Assembly (NCBI RefSeq): GCF_001427385.1
Contig: NZ_LMGJ01000033.1
Coordinates: 62,001-126,000, forward strand
Direction: 5' to 3'
Length of the DNA stretch: 64,000 nucleotides
Source of the DNA: Mesorhizobium sp. Root157
GTDB taxonomy: Bacteria > Pseudomonadota > Alphaproteobacteria > Rhizobiales > Rhizobiaceae
Shown piece after piece: positions 19,955 to 52,606 of this stretch (its first letter is position 1; each line of letters starts with the position of its first letter). Under the pieces are notes generated by a model. That model worked only from the letters and a program-made list of their open reading frames with translations, searched no databases and had not been told where the DNA came from. The translations under genes were made by a program, and so were the position numbers.

Positions 19955-22548
19955 CGCAAACCACCCGCCAACCCTGCTCCCATCGCTTCCTCGACGAGAT
20001 CGGCCGCCTCCATTAGCAGCGTCTCGTTGGCTTCGCCGTTGACCGATTCCTTGCCGATCTCCAGCATGATCGGTACGGCGAGCGGCGAAATCTGTTCAAG
20101 GTCCTTATGCACGATTCGTCCCCGGATACGCGAGAGCATGTCGGCAAGCCTGCTGACATCGAGCAGGCCGGCGGCAGCATCCGCCCGCGTCGCTTGCAAC
20201 AGGATGTGGTCGGGCTCGTGGCTGCGCAGCACATCGTAGATGAGATCGGCTGACACGGTCACCTGCCGCCCGGTTTTCTCCTGGCCCGGAAACCGCTTCT
20301 CGATCAGGCCGGCAATGACGGCGCAGGTGCGGAACATGCGCTTCAGCATCCAGCTGTCGTTCAGCCAGGCTTCGAGATCGTCACCCAACATGTCCTCATC
20401 GAACAGGCTGTCCAGCGAAGGCCTGCCTGCCGCAAACAGCGCGCCCATGTCGTCCAGACCCCACACCGCCAGCGAATAGTCGGTAGCGACGAAACCGAGC
20501 GGGCGCGCATTGGCCCGCTCCAGCCGACGCGTGAGCAACATACCGAGCGTCTGGTGCGCCAACCGGCCTTCGAAGGGATAGGCAACCATGTAGTGGCGGT
20601 CGGCACGGGGAAATGTCTCGACAAGCAGGTCGCCGCGCTTCGGCAGAACCGACTTTTCCTTTTGCAGCCGAAGCCAGTCCTCGACCTGTTCGGGAAGCGC
20701 GTGCCAGCTTTCGGGATCGGCCAGCATGCCGCGCACCTGATCGGCGAGGTAGGTGGACAGCGGAAACTTGCCGCCGGCGTATGAAGGTACGATGATCTGC
20801 GTCTTGCCGCCGCCATTGGAGACGACGCATTCGTTTTCGCGGATGCCTTCGAAGCGCAGCACCTTGCCGGCAAACAGGAAGTTGTCGCCGGGCCTGAGCG
20901 TCTCGGCAAAATATTCCTCAACCTTGCCAAGCACGCGCCCGCCATAACCCGCCACCGTGCCCTGCCGCACATAGCGCACGTTCAGTTCGGGCATTTCGAC
21001 GATGGTGCCGATGTTCAGCCGGTATTGCTGGGCGATGCGCGGATGGGGGACCCGCCACAACCCTTCGTTGGTCCTGCGGATGCGGGCATAGCGCTCGTAG
21101 CTTTTCAGGGCGTAGCCGCCGGTGGCAACGAAACCGACCACCCGGTCGAAGGTATGCCGGTCCAACCCGGCATAGGGTGCGGCGCTCGTCACTTCCTCAT
21201 AAAGCACGTCGGCATCGAAAGGTGCGGCGCAAGCGGTACCGAGGATATGCTGGGCCAGCACGTCGAGCGCGCCGCCGAGCAAGGGCGGCGTGTCCTGCGC
21301 GCCGATATAATTGGCATCGAGCGCGGCGCGGCATTCCAGCACCTCGAAGCGGTTGGCCGGAATGAGGATCGCCTTCGAAGGCTCGTCCATGCGGTGATTG
21401 GCGCGGCCTATGCGCTGCGCCAGCCGGCTGGCGCCCTTCGGCGCGCCGACGTGGACGACTAGATCGACATCGCCCCAGTCGATGCCGAGGTCGAGCGTTG
21501 ATGTAGCGACGATGGCTCTCAGCGCATTGTCGGCCATTGCCTTTTCGACGCGCCGGCGCTGGCCGACATCGAGCGAGCCGTGGTGCAGCGCGATCTGCAA
21601 GGCGTCCTCGTTTGCTCGCCACAACTCCTGAAACAACATCTCGGCCTGGCTGCGGGTGTTGACGAACAAAAGCGTCATCTTGTGCCTGCGGATCGCCTCA
21701 TAGATCTCGGGTATGGCATAGCGCGCCGAATGGCCGGCCCAAGGCACGCGCTCCCGCGATTCCAGAATGGAGATTTCCGGCTTGGCGCCGCCAGCAACGG
21801 TGATGAGCCCGGCCATTGGCTGGCTGGGTTGGCTTGATGTGAAACCTGCCGGCCCCTCCACTGTGTTCTCGTGGGCCTGGTGAGACGGTTTCTGAGAAAC
21901 AAGCCAGCGGCGCAATTCGTCGGGTTCGGCCACGGTTGCCGAAAGGCCGATGGCACGAAGATCGGGCACGTAGGTCCGCAGCCGCGCCAGCCCCAACGCC
22001 AGAAGGTGGCCGCGCTTGGAGGTGACCAGCGAATGCAGTTCGTCGAAGATGACGTAGCGCAAATCCTCAAAGAAGCGCCGGGCGTCCGTTGCGGCAATCA
22101 GCAGTGCCAGTTGCTCGGGCGTGGTGAGCAGGATGTCTGGCGGCGCCAGTTTCTGGCGCTGGCGCTTGTGGGCCGGCGTGTCGCCGGTGCGCGTCTCGAT
22201 GGTGACCGGCAGGCCGATCTCGGCAACCGGCTTGCCAAGATTGCGCTCGATGTCCACTGCCAGCGCCTTGAGCGGCGAGATGTAGAGCGTGTGGATGCCG
22301 CGCCTCGCCTGTCCCGGCTTGCGTTTTGGCCGCTCGGCCAGTTCCGTCAGCGTCGGCAGGAAGCCGGCGAGCGTCTTGCCAGCCCCGGTCGGCGCGATCA
22401 GCAGCACCGACTTCCCGGCCTGCGCACGGGCCAGCAACTCCATCTGATGGGCGCGCGGGGTCCAGCCCTTCTCGGCGAACCATCGGACGAACGGCCCGGG
22501 CAGGTGGATGGCGGCATTGTCTTCGGAGAGGTGCGGCTCGGCGGTCAC
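19951..22548 (-). CDS. Ligase-associated DNA damage response DEXH-box helicase (Lhr-like)
   Basis: An 865-residue superfamily 2 DNA helicase related to Lhr-Core: Walker A APTGAGKTLAGFLP, DEXH box FDELHSL, motif III LSATV, motif VI QRIGRANHR, then a winged-helix and an Lhr-specific C-terminal domain. Lhr-Core translocates 3' to 5' on single-stranded DNA and unwinds RNA:DNA hybrids. GTG 22548 was chosen; the frame is open up to TTG 22680, but those 44 residues look non-coding and family members start just before the MxLPxxFxxWFxxxGW-like segment. It is coupled to pdeM and separated by about 2.1 kb from the exonuclease and ligase genes on the other strand. Confidence 0.93.
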   Translation of the reverse strand: MTAEPHLSEDNAAIHLPGPFVRWFAEKGWTPRAHQMELLARAQAGKSVLLIAPTGAGKTLAGFLPTLTELAERPKRKPGQARRGIHTLYISPLKALAVDIERNLGKPVAEIGLPVTIETRTGDTPAHKRQRQKLAPPDILLTTPEQLALLIAATDARRFFEDLRYVIFDELHSLVTSKRGHLLALGLARLRTYVPDLRAIGLSATVAEPDELRRWLVSQKPSHQAHENTVEGPAGFTSSQPSQPMAGLITVAGGAKPEISILESRERVPWAGHSARYAIPEIYEAIRRHKMTLLFVNTRSQAEMLFQELWRANEDALQIALHHGSLDVGQRRRVEKAMADNALRAIVATSTLDLGIDWGDVDLVVHVGAPKGASRLAQRIGRANHRMDEPSKAILIPANRFEVLECRAALDANYIGAQDTPPLLGGALDVLAQHILGTACAAPFDADVLYEEVTSAAPYAGLDRHTFDRVVGFVATGGYALKSYERYARIRRTNEGLWRVPHPRIAQQYRLNIGTIVEMPELNVRYVRQGTVAGYGGRVLGKVEEYFAETLRPGDNFLFAGKVLRFEGIRENECVVSNGGGKTQIIVPSYAGGKFPLSTYLADQVRGMLADPESWHALPEQVEDWLRLQKEKSVLPKRGDLLVETFPRADRHYMVAYPFEGRLAHQTLGMLLTRRLERANARPLGFVATDYSLAVWGLDDMGALFAAGRPSLDSLFDEDMLGDDLEAWLNDSWMLKRMFRTCAVIAGLIEKRFPGQEKTGRQVTVSADLIYDVLRSHEPDHILLQATRADAAAGLLDVSRLADMLSRIRGRIVHKDLEQISPLAVPIMLEIGKESVNGEANETLLMEAADLVEEAMGAGLAGGLR

Positions 22549-46412: not shown

Positions 46413-46426
46413 TTGATCTGGCGCAA
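46413..46426. promoter_or_regulatory. FixK/FNR-type box upstream of ccoN
   Basis: On the minus strand TTGCGCCAGATCAA fits TTG[AC]-N6-[GT]CAA exactly, 81 bases before the ccoN ATG. A start site about 41 bases downstream of its centre would leave a leader of some 45 nt. The rest of 46333-46699 shows no gene. Confidence 0.75.
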
Positions 46427-46699
46427 GGAACAAAACGTAGCAGCCGCCACCGTATGCGACCTGCGGACGCTCGGTCGAGACACTTGGTCTCAGAACTTAG
46501 CACACCACGCAAGGTTGAGTTTGCCCTGGTTTTGCGCCGTGACGAGGTAAACTGTTGATAGCACTTGCCGTCCCTGTCCAGCGGTCAGTCGGGCGACATT
46601 GCGCCGCGCCTCATGTTGCGATGCACAAGGTGCAATGCTGCCATGCAAAATTGAGACTTTTACCAATCGGTCAACAGGACTAATTTCTGATCATCGAAT

Positions 46700-46818
46700 T
46701 CCGCCGAGCCATCCTCCTCCCAGGCTAAGGCGGATACGGTCAGCCTTCACCTCCTCCCGATCGCTGACCGACCCATACGACACCCGCCGGACCTCCTCCC
46801 CCGGCGGGTGTTGTTTTT
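46700..46818 (+). ncRNA. Three-hairpin small RNA with CCTCCTCCC loops (alpha-r14/NfeR1-like)
   Basis: Three successive stem-loops each expose the same anti-Shine-Dalgarno motif CCTCCTCCC. Hairpin 1 (46701-46733: CCGCC/GGCGG plus AGCC/GGCT) has it at 46713-46721. Hairpin 2 (46737-46770, CGGTCAGC/GCTGACCG) has it at 46750-46758. Hairpin 3 (46780-46811, an 11-bp stem ACACCCGCCGG/CCGGCGGGTGT) has it at 46792-46800 and ends in TGTTTTT, a Rho-independent terminator. This architecture matches, from memory, the rhizobial alpha-r14 family (Rfam suhB; NfeR1 of Sinorhizobium meliloti), trans-acting RNAs that pair with ribosome sites of transporter mRNAs. The 5' end is estimated. Confidence 0.82.
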
Positions 46819-46943: not shown

Positions 46944-46957
46944 TGAAATCGATTTCA
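46944..46957. promoter_or_regulatory. LacI-family operator of the sugar ABC operon
   Basis: TGAAATCGATTTCA is a perfect 14-bp palindrome with a central CG, typical of LacI/GalR operators, 49 bases before the binding-protein ATG. The natural ligand protein is the LacI regulator encoded at 51587-52606 in the same operon. Confidence 0.75.
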
Positions 46958-47005
46958 TTTCAATCTAAGCTTTCTCCACAGTTGAGCTTCCGGGAGGATA
47001 TCTAC

Positions 47006-48031
47006 ATGAAAAAGTCGCTTGTTCTGTCAGCCGTCGCCGCCACGGCGATCGCCTTCTCCGCACTCTCCGCTTACGCCAAGGACGTCAAGATCGGCCTGTC
47101 GAACGGCTGGGTCGGCTCCGAATGGCGCACGCAAATGATCGACGAGGCCAAGGCCGCCGCCGAGAAGTGGAAGGAAAAGGGCATCAACGTCACCGTCGAG
47201 GTGCAAAGCGCCAACGTCGACGTACCCGGCCAGATCGCCCATGTCCGCAACTTCATCAGCGAGGGCGTCGACGCCATCATCATCAATCCGAACAGCCCGA
47301 CCGCCTTCGATCCGGTGTTCGCACAGGCCAAGGAAGCCGGCATTCTCGTCATCGCCACCGACGCCGAAGTGTCGTCGCCCGACGCGCTTTATGTCGGTAT
47401 CGACCAGAAGGCGTGGGGCGCCGCCGGCGCCGAGTGGCTGGCCAAGACCTTGAACGGCAAGGGCAACGTCGTCGCCATCAATGGCGTCGCCGGCCATCCG
47501 GCCAACGAAATGCGCGTTGCCGGCTACAAGGAAGTGTTCGCCAAGCATCCCGACATCAAGCTGGTCAACGAAGTCAACGCCAATTGGGATCAGGCACAGG
47601 GTCAGCAGGCCATGCAGAACCTGCTCGCCACCTATCCCGACATCAACGGCGTGTGGGTTCAGGACGGCATGGCGGCAGGCGCCTGGAAGTCGATCATGGA
47701 CGCAGGCAAGACCGGTTCCATCGCGGCCACCGGCGAAATCCGCAAGGACTTCATCGACATCTGGACGAAGGACAAGCTGAACTCCGGCGCGTCGGTCAAC
47801 CCTCCCGGCGTGATGGCTTCCGCGCTCAACGTCGCGGTGCTGATGCTGCAGGGCAAGGAACTGAAGGAGCCGGCGACGGCTGGCCAGTACAAGAACGCCA
47901 TGTATCTGCCGATCCCCTTCATCGATGGTTCCAACCTGGCGGACGCGGCCAAGGCGCTTGAAGGCAAGCCGGGCTATTACTCCTACACCTCGTCCTTCTC
48001 GATCGAAGACGCCGAAAAGCTCTTCAAGTAG
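47006..48031 (+). CDS. Sugar ABC transporter periplasmic substrate-binding protein
   Basis: A 341-residue periplasmic binding protein of the ribose/galactose (type I) fold. The signal peptide is KKSLVLSAVAATAIAFSALS (cut after AYA). The body has VDAIIINPNSPTAFDPVFAQ and TYPDINGVWVQDGMAAGAWK, typical of the RbsB family. The substrate is not assignable. The start follows GGGAGGATAT. A hairpin after the stop codon may raise its amount relative to the other subunits, and a LacI operator controls the operon. Confidence 0.93.
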   Translation: MKKSLVLSAVAATAIAFSALSAYAKDVKIGLSNGWVGSEWRTQMIDEAKAAAEKWKEKGINVTVEVQSANVDVPGQIAHVRNFISEGVDAIIINPNSPTAFDPVFAQAKEAGILVIATDAEVSSPDALYVGIDQKAWGAAGAEWLAKTLNGKGNVVAINGVAGHPANEMRVAGYKEVFAKHPDIKLVNEVNANWDQAQGQQAMQNLLATYPDINGVWVQDGMAAGAWKSIMDAGKTGSIAATGEIRKDFIDIWTKDKLNSGASVNPPGVMASALNVAVLMLQGKELKEPATAGQYKNAMYLPIPFIDGSNLADAAKALEGKPGYYSYTSSFSIEDAEKLFK

Positions 48032-50598: not shown

Positions 50599-51590
50599 GC
50601 GACGCCGCCACGCCCTCTCACTCCCCCGCCGCTGCCGCGCGCATCGTCGAGTTCGCGAAGCAGCCGCTGGTGGTGGCGCTGATCCTGGTCGCCGCCCTGC
50701 TCTATCTGGGCGAAACGCTGTCGCCGGGCTTTGCCTCGGGTCAGCAGATCATGCGCCTGCTGATCGTGGCTGCCCTGCTGGGCATCGTCGCCGCCGGCCA
50801 GAACCTGGTCGTCCTCGGCGGCCGCGAAGGCATCGACCTCTCCGTCGGCGGCGTGGTGTCGCTGAGCGCCATCGTCGCCGGGAACCTGATGGCGGGCGAA
50901 AATGCCGGCATCCCGCTGGCGATCGTCGCCTGCATCGCCACGGGCGCCCTTTTCGGCCTGTTCAACGGCATCGGCGTGACGCTGCTGCGCATTCCGCCTC
51001 TGGTGATGACGCTCGGCATGCTCGGCGTTCTCCAGGGCCTGCTCGTCGTCATTCGCCAGGGCATCCCGTCGGGCCGCGCCGCACCCGGCCTCGCCGACTT
51101 CGTCTCGCAGCCATTCCTGTTCGGTGTGCCGGGTATTTTGTGGCTGTGGGTGGTCATCGGGCTTTTGATGGCTTTCCTGCTTGGCCGCACCGTGTTCGGC
51201 CACCGCATCTATGCCATCGGCTCCAACGAGCAGGCGGCCTACATGGCAGGCGTTCCGGTCAAGGCGGCGCGCATTGCGCTATTCGTGCTGTCCGGCGTCT
51301 TTGCGGCAATCGCCGGCATCTGCCTGCTCGGCTATTCGGGTTCCTCTTTCGCCAATGTCGGCGAGCAGTACATGCTGCCCTCCATCATCGCGGTGGTGTT
51401 CGGCGGCACGCCGCTCTCCGGCGGCAAGGGCGGCTACACCGGAACGATGGCGGGGGCGCTGCTGCTGGTCATCCTGCAAAGCATACTGGTCACCATCAAT
51501 ATCGATGAGTCGGGCCGCCAGATGGTGTTTGGCATCACGCTTCTTGTGCTGATGCTGTTCTACGGCCGCGGCCGCTCGATGCGCGCATGA
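50595..51590 (+). CDS. Sugar ABC transporter permease (second, RbsC type)
   Basis: A 331-residue permease paralogous to the preceding one: VVLGGREGIDLSVGGVVSLS and VVFGGTPLSGGKGGYTGTMA match the same signature sites. Two permease genes point to a heterodimeric channel rather than the RbsC homodimer. ATG 50595 was chosen: it overlaps the upstream stop by 4 bases and starts a plausible helical N-terminus, whereas longer frames run through the previous gene in another register. The LacI gene overlaps its end. Confidence 0.92.
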   Translation: MSDAATPSHSPAAAARIVEFAKQPLVVALILVAALLYLGETLSPGFASGQQIMRLLIVAALLGIVAAGQNLVVLGGREGIDLSVGGVVSLSAIVAGNLMAGENAGIPLAIVACIATGALFGLFNGIGVTLLRIPPLVMTLGMLGVLQGLLVVIRQGIPSGRAAPGLADFVSQPFLFGVPGILWLWVVIGLLMAFLLGRTVFGHRIYAIGSNEQAAYMAGVPVKAARIALFVLSGVFAAIAGICLLGYSGSSFANVGEQYMLPSIIAVVFGGTPLSGGKGGYTGTMAGALLLVILQSILVTINIDESGRQMVFGITLLVLMLFYGRGRSMRA

Positions 51591-52606
51591 CCGCCCGTCC
51601 GAAGATCAAGGATATCGCCGAGCGTCTCGGCGTTTCGCCCGCCACCGTATCGCGTGCGCTGGCCGATACCGGACTGGTGGCCGAGCCGACGCTGTCGCGC
51701 ATCCGCGAAGCTGCAAGCGCCCTCAACTACCGGCCCAATGTCAGCGCCCGCAATTTGCGCACCCGCCGCTCCATGGCCGTGCTTCTGGTGGTGCGCGATA
51801 TCGGCAACCCGTTCTACCTCGATATCCTGAAAGGCGTGGAGGCTGCGGCGCGCGCCGCCGGCTATTCCGTGCTGATGGGCAATGCCGAGAACGACCCCGC
51901 CCATGAGACGGAATATTTCGACATGCTGCGCGACGGTCATGCCGACGGCATGATTCTGATGACCGGCTCCCTGCCTCCGGGCCAGGCATCGCGCGACCGC
52001 CTACCGCCGGATCTGCCGGTGGTTGTCGCACTGGAAATGATAGAGGACGCGGGTTTTCCCCATGTGCAGATCGACAATGCCGCTGCCGCCCGACAGGCAG
52101 TCGAGCATCTGATCGGCCTCGGCCATCGCCGCATCGCCCACATTTCCGGCCCGGTGCCGGAAGTGATGAGCCTCAAGCGCAGGGAAGGCTACCGCATCGC
52201 CATGCGCGGGGCCGGGCTGGCGGTGCCGGAAGGCTACGAGCAGCGCGGCGACTATCTTTTGCAATCTGGGCGCGATGCCTGCCGCCGGCTGTTTTCGCTT
52301 GCCGAGCCGCCGACCGCGATTTTCCTCGCCAACGACGAAATGGCCTTCGGCGCCATCCACGAACTGCGCCGGATCGGGTGCGACGTGCCCGGCGACGTTT
52401 CCGTTGTCGGCTTCGACGACCTCTATCTCAGCGAAGCCTTCTTTCCGCCGCTGACCACCGTTGCCCAGCCGCGGACAGAAATCGGCAAGCGGGCGATGGG
52501 ATTGCTGCTCGACATGTTCGCTGGCGGCAGCGCGCCGAAACAGCCCCTGGTGCTGGAGACGACGCTCAAGATACGCGGCACCACAGCTGCGCCGAAACAA
52601 GACTGA
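51587..52606 (+). CDS. LacI family transcriptional regulator
   Basis: A 339-residue repressor: N-terminal HTH and hinge (IKDIAERLGVSPATVSRALA, YRPNVSARNLRTRRS) and a periplasmic-binding-fold effector domain (SMAVLLVVRDIGNPFYLDIL to ...GDVSVVGFDDLYLSEAFFPP). It is encoded within the operon it probably represses, through the palindrome at 46944-46957. The inducer is unknown but should be a metabolite of the transported sugar. Confidence 0.94.
   Translation: MTARPKIKDIAERLGVSPATVSRALADTGLVAEPTLSRIREAASALNYRPNVSARNLRTRRSMAVLLVVRDIGNPFYLDILKGVEAAARAAGYSVLMGNAENDPAHETEYFDMLRDGHADGMILMTGSLPPGQASRDRLPPDLPVVVALEMIEDAGFPHVQIDNAAAARQAVEHLIGLGHRRIAHISGPVPEVMSLKRREGYRIAMRGAGLAVPEGYEQRGDYLLQSGRDACRRLFSLAEPPTAIFLANDEMAFGAIHELRRIGCDVPGDVSVVGFDDLYLSEAFFPPLTTVAQPRTEIGKRAMGLLLDMFAGGSAPKQPLVLETTLKIRGTTAAPKQD

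What the first reader, a model, noticed from the sequence alone, without database searches (positions are those of the whole stretch)
46700..46818. Small RNA with three identical CCTCCTCCC loops next to a sugar ABC operon
Seen: three consecutive hairpins (46701-46733, 46737-46770, 46780-46811) each exposing the exact 9-mer CCTCCTCCC, the last being a terminator with T-run. Known (from memory): alpha-r14/suhB RNAs such as NfeR1 of S. meliloti have three such loops and pair with ribosome sites of transporter and other mRNAs. Inference: this RNA would repress translation of mRNAs with GGGAGGAGG-like sites. It sits 188 nt upstream of the binding-protein gene, whose ribosome site GGGAGGAT is a candidate target.
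Basis: partly seen in the sequence, partly recalled or inferred. Interest (0 to 1): 0.75.

Follow-up and report, generated by a model that had tools for sequence, protein, structure and literature searches.

The report
Known ar14 small RNA, LsrB-type promoter
The sequence encodes a real member of a known family of bacterial small RNAs that block ribosome-binding sites; its promoter carries a box like that of a redox/nitrogen regulator and perhaps one of a carbon-storage regulator, as do many related copies, which suggests a shared, testable wiring.

Summary
Window 46695-46816 (+) is an ar14 small RNA (Rfam RF02344, 84.8 bits, cut-off 58.8), the family of S. meliloti NfeR1 and the "cuckoo" RNAs. 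It has three hairpins with exposed CCUCCUCCC loops, the last a terminator. It is not suhB. The host is a Mesorhizobium-type bacterium whose genome holds four ar14 copies over the cut-off.

New here is the promoter. A box at 46633-46647 matches the published LsrB/VtlR motif at 14 of 15 positions, the best match in the window. Four bases upstream lies an exact match to the published PhaR consensus (46617-46628), which is less specific. A box model trained on other stand-alone copies finds the LsrB-type box upstream of 21 of 22 DUF1127-linked loci and 0 of 15 phasin-linked ones. LsrB and PhaR genes are present.

The adjacent sugar-ABC operon is a plausible trans target (GGGAGGA ribosome site in 49 of 54 orthologues). 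Adjacency is weak evidence: a full ar14 RNA lies beside it in 3 of 80 fetched loci.

Expression, LsrB/PhaR binding and repression are inferred, not shown. It is a new member of a known kind.

The parts
46695..46816 (+). ar14 small RNA gene (NfeR1/cuckoo type)
   Evidence: Rfam RF02344, 84.8 bits, model 1-123 of 123; fold z -8.57; loops conserved in a 22-sequence alignment
46700..46734 (+). hairpin 1 with CCUCCUCCC loop (46713-46721)
   Evidence: not in the consensus fold of the alignment
46737..46770 (+). hairpin 2 with CCUCCUCCC loop (46750-46758)
   Evidence: covarying stem
46777..46818 (+). hairpin 3 with CCUCCUCCC loop (46792-46800) and T-run: intrinsic terminator
   Evidence: covarying stem; the simple terminator scan allows loops of 3-8 only and does not list it (loop 10)
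46633..46647 (+). LsrB/VtlR-type box CAATGCTGCCATGCA
   Evidence: 14 of 15 identical to the VtlR motif quoted in PMC12595884; best of all window positions on both strands, next best 2 mismatches at 22519; held-out box model 27.4 bits against 14.05 for the next independent site
46617..46628 (+). PhaR-type box TGCGATGCACAA
   Evidence: exact match to TGCRNYGCASMA (PMC6201568); not rare by itself: 4 matches in the window, 1.61 expected; fixed spacing to the LsrB box in many relatives
46657..46685 (+). putative core promoter CTTTTAC-N16-CTAATT
   Evidence: sequence; weak, no hit in the E. coli-type scan
47006..48031 (+). sugar-ABC substrate-binding protein, candidate trans target; ribosome site 46992-46998
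   Evidence: Pfam Peripla_BP_4; closest NCBIfam is YtfQ, far below its cut-off; pairing -16.9 kcal/mol
46944..46957 (.). LacI-type operator TGAAATCGATTTCA of the ABC operon (independent control)
   Evidence: a match within two substitutions in 54 of 54 examined orthologue loci

Best explanation
This is a stand-alone ar14 (NfeR1/cuckoo family) trans-acting small RNA. Its three identical anti-Shine-Dalgarno loops pair with G-rich ribosome sites, mostly of transporter mRNAs, and block translation. It is transcribed from its own promoter, activated by the redox/nitrogen-linked LysR regulator LsrB (VtlR). Shown here by sequence: family membership, loop exposure, stem covariation, the box, and the presence of an LsrB orthologue. 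Inferred: transcription, LsrB binding, and repression of targets including the neighbouring sugar-binding-protein mRNA.
For: Rfam match over the cut-off. Three exposed loops. 13 of 21 consensus pairs show compensatory change in 22 aligned relatives while loop letters stay nearly fixed. Box 14/15 to the published VtlR motif at -62 to -48; in passages of the literature the LsrB site of PabcR1 is at -61 to -49 and that of NfeR1 at -72 to -57. Held-out box model. In the 4.19-Mb genome TGCANNGCNGCNATGCA occurs at two places, both in front of ar14 loci; the backward control pattern at none. LsrB orthologue beside trxB, 458 bits over all 298 residues to 9HH1, the A. tumefaciens LsrB structure. VtlR motif with up to 3 mismatches on either strand: 20 of 22 DUF1127-type and 21 of 49 other ar14 loci, against 3 of 71 SBP-upstream controls.
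Against: No expression data. The core promoter is weak. The NtrC motif reported at -116 to -101 in S. meliloti is not found there. The ntrB start of this genome has no GGGAGGAG-like site; pairing is -13.2 to -14.4 kcal/mol with bulges. Of 49 'rest' copies, 14 lack a box of 15 bits or more, and 17 carry the published motif with up to 3 mismatches on the plus strand. Hairpin 1 is not in the alignment consensus fold. With one mismatch a related box pattern occurs at five genome places, three of them not at ar14 loci. The literature disagrees on LsrB and AbcR1 in S. meliloti (no effect in PMC7486931; strong effect in PMC8844928).
Confidence: 0.78

Rival explanations
1. The RNA is a dedicated local regulator of the adjacent sugar-ABC operon, kept beside it because it controls it.
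For: 8-bp pairing of loop 2 with the ribosome site, -16.9 kcal/mol, rank 5 of 51; the top-ranked gene (-20.4) is the second permease of the same operon, though its leader is simply G-rich. Adjacency is kept in three further genomes (two MAGs and strain Root552: L039, L041, L040).
Against: A full ar14 RNA lies beside the operon in 3 of 80 fetched loci (a few loci hold little upstream DNA, and L097 has one lone motif at -85), yet GGGAGGA is kept in 49 of 54 orthologues. All 25 named genomes searched carry ar14 somewhere. The operon has its own LacI-type operator, and a terminator separates the units.
Confidence: 0.08
2. The upstream PhaR-like box is simply the second half of one extended LsrB (LysR tetramer) site, and PhaR plays no part.
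For: Start-to-start spacing to the LsrB box is 16 nt in 25 of 31 loci with both, as a single tetramer would require. PMC8844928 reports tandem T-N11-A motifs in PabcR1. The two motifs are partly alike: several PhaR hits in Sinorhizobium copies are the LsrB box read backwards. The consensus is not rare in the window (4 found, 1.61 expected), and the phaR locus itself has none.
Against: The 13-mer TTGCNNTGCACAA is found upstream of 11 of 15 phasin-linked copies (14 of 15 in a relaxed form), where no LsrB-type box reaches 15 bits; phasin genes are PhaR-controlled in Bradyrhizobium. In this genome the 13-mer also precedes a 3-hydroxybutyryl-CoA dehydrogenase gene.
Confidence: 0.5
3. The hairpins are only a strong terminator region or a silent ar14 copy; in S. 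meliloti only one of six copies is detectably transcribed (PMC7143759 passage).
For: Multi-copy family; no RNA data here; weak core promoter.
Against: All three loops and stems are intact. The promoter-box region is kept in L039 and L041 and is similar to that of the DUF1127-ar14 operon (alignment score 59, maximum 31 in 300 shuffles). The RNA is 95% identical in L039 and 84% in L041.
Confidence: 0.1

Closest known systems
NfeR1 of Sinorhizobium meliloti (alpha-r14, RF02344)
   Same: Three hairpins with identical CCUCCUCCC loops; about 120 nt; own promoter with an LsrB-type box at about the same distance
   Different: No NtrC motif at -116 to -101; ntrB pairing site not clearly kept in this genome. 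The NfeR1 locus itself was not identified with certainty among the Sinorhizobium copies, so orthology is not claimed
CcsR/cuckoo RNAs downstream of DUF1127 genes (CIN1 locus, Rhodobacter CcsR1-4 with CcaF1)
   Same: Same loop module; present in this genome as a tandem pair after two DUF1127 genes (C6), with a similar promoter-box region
   Different: The window copy is single and has no DUF1127 gene; the Rhodobacter operon is described with an RpoHI/RpoHII promoter (PMC10253847 passage)
AbcR1/AbcR2 (alpha-r15, RF02345)
   Same: LsrB/VtlR-controlled in some species; anti-SD motifs aimed at ABC-transporter mRNAs (passages)
   Different: Different Rfam family; interacts with Hfq according to PMC8844928; a separate ar15 copy lies beside lsrB in this genome (L235:3641-3755)

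Membership tests
ar14 (RF02344) | covariance-model score over the curated cut-off | tested here: met
   84.8 against 58.8 bits, full length
ar14 (RF02344) | three hairpins, each with unpaired CCUCCUCCC | tested here: met
ar14 (RF02344) | variable but covarying stems, fixed loops | tested here: met
   13 of 21 pairs with double changes, in hairpins 2 and 3; hairpin 1 inconclusive on that alignment
NfeR1-type regulation | LsrB box upstream of the core promoter | tested here: met
   by sequence only; LsrB gene present
NfeR1-type regulation | NtrC motif TGC-N11-GCA at -116 to -101 | tested here: not met
   only match within 150 nt upstream is at -64; the paper itself suggests the motif is restricted to plant symbionts
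NfeR1-type regulation | sigma-70 core CTTAGAC-N17-CTATAT | tested here: inconclusive
   CTTTTAC-N16-CTAATT; no hit in the E. coli-type scan
NfeR1-type regulation | pairing with the ntrB start region | tested here: inconclusive
   -13.2 to -14.4 kcal/mol with bulges
NfeR1-type regulation | stress- and symbiosis-induced, Hfq-independent transcript | not testable with these tools
   needs RNA
CIN1/CcsR operon (DUF1127-linked) | DUF1127 gene directly upstream | tested here: not met
   no DUF1127 within 900 nt upstream of the window copy; met by the C6 copies
   only ar14 and one tRNA in the window

The most novel reading that the evidence does not exclude
In Rhizobiales the anti-Shine-Dalgarno ar14 RNAs are the common output of two inputs: the carbon-storage regulator PhaR (AniA) and the redox/nitrogen-linked regulator LsrB (VtlR). 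Many stand-alone copies and most DUF1127-ar14 operons share a composite PhaR-LsrB promoter, while other copies ride in the 3' end of the PhaR-controlled phasin mRNA. When carbon stores are full the RNAs rise and shut down sugar-transporter translation. On this view the small-protein (DUF1127) targets assigned to VtlR are mixed protein-sRNA operons, and the RNAs are the overlooked effectors.
Probability: 0.35. Interest if true: 0.75.

Novelty: new member of a known kind. Interest (0 to 1): 0.45.

Why it matters
The RNA itself is a known type. Its promoter ties together three separately published threads: LsrB driving NfeR1, VtlR driving DUF1127 genes, and DUF1127 genes sitting in front of cuckoo RNAs. 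It adds a possible fourth, the polyhydroxybutyrate regulator PhaR. The abstract of PMC12595884 reports that overexpressing AbcR2 and the three DUF1127 targets did not make up for the loss of vtlR in Brucella. If such DUF1127 transcripts carry ar14 RNAs, those RNAs are an untested candidate for the missing effector. Here that arrangement, with the box, was seen in an Ochrobactrum (L202, L204); Brucella itself was not examined. Ten full-text searches listed no paper that I recognised as joining these threads; I saw passages or the abstract of ten papers in all. The 2015 cuckoo-RNA paper and the 2012 alpha-r14 paper were not held, and the 2017 NfeR1 paper was not looked up, so priority is not established.

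Tried and rejected
Cis-control of the sugar operon was considered and rejected as an inference from adjacency. A FixK/microaerobic input was rejected: the box at 46413 is beside ccoN. The TGCA-N6-GCA[AT] form of the LsrB motif was tried first and is less discriminating (1 of 22, 0 of 15 and 15 of 49 loci); the 15-mer and the trained model replaced it. The pattern GCAW-N3-TG-N3-T (from PMC8844928, relaxed) was found within 110 nt of the start in 19 of 49 'rest' loci. My first 24-sequence alignment was wrong, because loci from whole genomes are not turned to the match; it was redone. Conservation of the ntrB target was tested and not clearly found. Two papers were not held.

Limits of the counts: the 86 ar14 loci are 80 stretches chosen by me plus 6 others. 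71 of the 80 come; there one hit over the cut-off at a contig end (G071 C2) and nearly all hits under the cut-off were left out (L220, 52.1 bits, was kept). 9 come from the long, capped list, whose other hits were left out. Tandem copies were merged and closely related species are not independent. In some searches the box model was trained on 45 of the 49 'rest' loci, so only the window, L039, L040, L041 and the A and B classes are independent tests, and the training set still holds other Mesorhizobium-type copies. Class A includes L167 and L219, where the DUF1127 gene is not directly adjacent; class B includes L181, where the phasin gene ends 193 nt away. The target ranking uses a home-made gene caller, duplex energy only, no accessibility, and for each gene the best of several possible starts. 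Model R1 was built from an alignment that already holds L039 and L041.

Full report
WHAT IS THERE. The three CCTCCTCCC copies are at 46713, 46750 and 46792 and nowhere else in the window. They sit unpaired in three hairpins; the last is a terminator. Rfam calls the stretch ar14, RF02344, at 84.8 bits against a cut-off of 58.8. In 22 aligned relatives loops 1 and 3 are invariant and loop 2 nearly so, while 13 of 21 consensus pairs show changes on both sides that keep the pair (these are hairpins 2 and 3, hairpin 1 is not in the consensus fold). So the RNA is real as a conserved structure. Expression was not testable.

WHERE IT IS. The window's binding protein is identical over its length to that of Mesorhizobium sp. 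61-13; ccoN is 94% identical there, so the window is from a close relative. On the left are ccoN, ccoO and ccoP on the minus strand. On the right is a sugar-ABC operon of unassigned substrate (all NCBIfam equivalogs below their cut-offs for the three transport proteins scanned), with a LacI-family regulator gene at 51587. Two further genomes keep ccoN, the RNA and the binding-protein gene together (L039, a MAG; L040, strain Root552). One MAG keeps only the RNA and the binding-protein gene in the stretch held (L041; G012 has the same place).

THE FAMILY IN THIS AND OTHER GENOMES. The own genome has four copies over the cut-off: a tandem pair on C6 after two DUF1127 genes, one on C37 after a phasin gene, and the window copy. 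Of 61 genomes, own included, 37 have a copy over the cut-off, as do 25 of 25 genomes reached through named loci (26 asked for, one not held). I oriented 86 chosen loci and sorted them: 22 have a DUF1127 gene upstream (A), 15 a phasin gene (B), 49 neither (rest). Class A is the published CIN1 arrangement (PMC10253847 passages). I saw no description of class B in the papers listed or read (searches 37 and 50 asked for phasin).

THE LsrB/VtlR BOX. A 24-nt box model was trained on 45 'rest' loci, with the window and its three closest relatives held out. Over both strands of the window its best site is 46628-46651, 27.4 bits; the next independent site has 14.05. The published VtlR motif CAATGCAGCCATGCA (quoted in PMC12595884) matches 46633-46647 with one mismatch, the best place in the window; the next has two. 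The model scores 15 bits or more within 900 nt upstream in 21 of 22 class A loci (mostly in front of the DUF1127 genes), in 0 of 15 class B and in 35 of 49 rest. None of 980 shuffled upstream stretches reaches 15 bits. The 15-mer with up to 3 mismatches, both strands, is found in 20 of 22, 1 of 15 and 21 of 49, against 3 of 71 upstream regions of the binding-protein orthologues; reversed, in 0 of 157. In the whole genome TGCANNGCNGCNATGCA occurs at two places, both ar14 promoters; a related pattern with one mismatch allowed at five, three of them elsewhere. The two promoters align over 57 nt (score 59; best of 300 shuffles 31). An LsrB orthologue lies directly after trxB, the arrangement described for LsrB, with an ar15 (AbcR-family) RNA behind it. 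Against: the literature disagrees on whether LsrB drives AbcR1 in S. meliloti, and 14 of 49 rest loci lack the box.

A POSSIBLE PhaR BOX. The PhaR consensus TGCRNYGCASMA (PMC6201568 abstract and passages) matches 46617-46628 exactly. On either strand it occurs upstream in 20 of 22 A, 15 of 15 B and 27 of 49 rest (23 within 120 nt), against 76 of 2000 random stretches of the window and 2 of 71 promoter controls; the reversed consensus occurs in 0 of 86 loci and 1 of 71 controls. On the plus strand alone the rest count is 20 of 49, 16 within 120 nt, because part of the two-strand count is the LsrB box read backwards. Both boxes at a start-to-start spacing of 15-17 nt: 18 of 22 A, 10 of 49 rest, 0 of 15 B. 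Against a PhaR reading: within the window alone the consensus is not rare (4 found, 1.61 expected); the fixed spacing (16 nt in 25 of 31 loci with both) would also fit one long LsrB site; the phaR locus itself has no such box. For it: the box stands without an LsrB-type box at phasin genes, and TTGCNNTGCACAA occurs at eight places in the genome, three of them the three ar14 loci and one before a 3-hydroxybutyryl-CoA dehydrogenase gene; the backward control pattern occurs at two. A PhaR gene is present (149.5 bits, cut-off 109.45). The review PMC7143759 (passage) says AniA represses another sRNA, mmgR, so an AniA-sRNA link has precedent; that AniA is the rhizobial PhaR is recalled.

HOW IT PROBABLY WORKS. 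NfeR1 represses two substrate-binding-protein mRNAs and ntrB in S. meliloti (PMC8844928, PMC10746234 passages). By analogy this RNA should cover G-rich ribosome sites. The binding-protein start here can form 8 pairs with loop 2, -16.9 kcal/mol, rank 5 of 51 called window genes; the second permease of the same operon ranks first (-20.4), in a G-rich leader. GGGAGGA is kept in 49 of 54 orthologues (those of 80 fetched whose start aligned), whereas a full ar14 RNA is beside the operon in 3 of 80 (weaker model hits elsewhere in L078, L097, L099 and L100 lie more than 2 kb away, and L097 has one lone motif at -85). The target is therefore plausible in trans, and adjacency is probably accidental. 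A LacI-type operator is found within two substitutions in 54 of 54.

VERDICT. It is a new member of a known family; the shared promoter logic is the part worth testing.

Noticed in passing
G000 C37:52230-52343 (L004:1501-1614); 15 class B loci: An ar14 RNA with two or three anti-SD motifs follows a phasin gene, 3'-UTR style, across several genera; I saw no description of this in the papers listed or read.
   Followed up: partly
G000 C6:95745-96465 (L238): Two DUF1127 genes followed by two ar14 RNAs, with a promoter-box region similar to that of the window RNA.
   Followed up: yes
window 46413-46426: FixK/FNR-like box TTGATCTGGCGCAA in front of ccoN, perhaps its microaerobic control site.
   Followed up: no
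window 46944-46957: Perfect LacI-type palindrome in front of the sugar-ABC operon, kept within two substitutions in 54 of 54 orthologue loci examined; a LacI-family gene is at 51587-52606.
   Followed up: partly
L235:3641-3755: An ar15 (AbcR-family) RNA directly behind the lsrB orthologue, as described for S. meliloti and Agrobacterium.
   Followed up: no
L054:2945-3114: Rfam match to the Brucella sRNA CI27 family in Mesorhizobium sp. L-8-3.
   Followed up: no
L078:2294-2402: Weak ar14-like match (30.5 bits with model R1) about 2.6 kb upstream of the binding-protein gene in Sinorhizobium fredii USDA 205.
   Followed up: no
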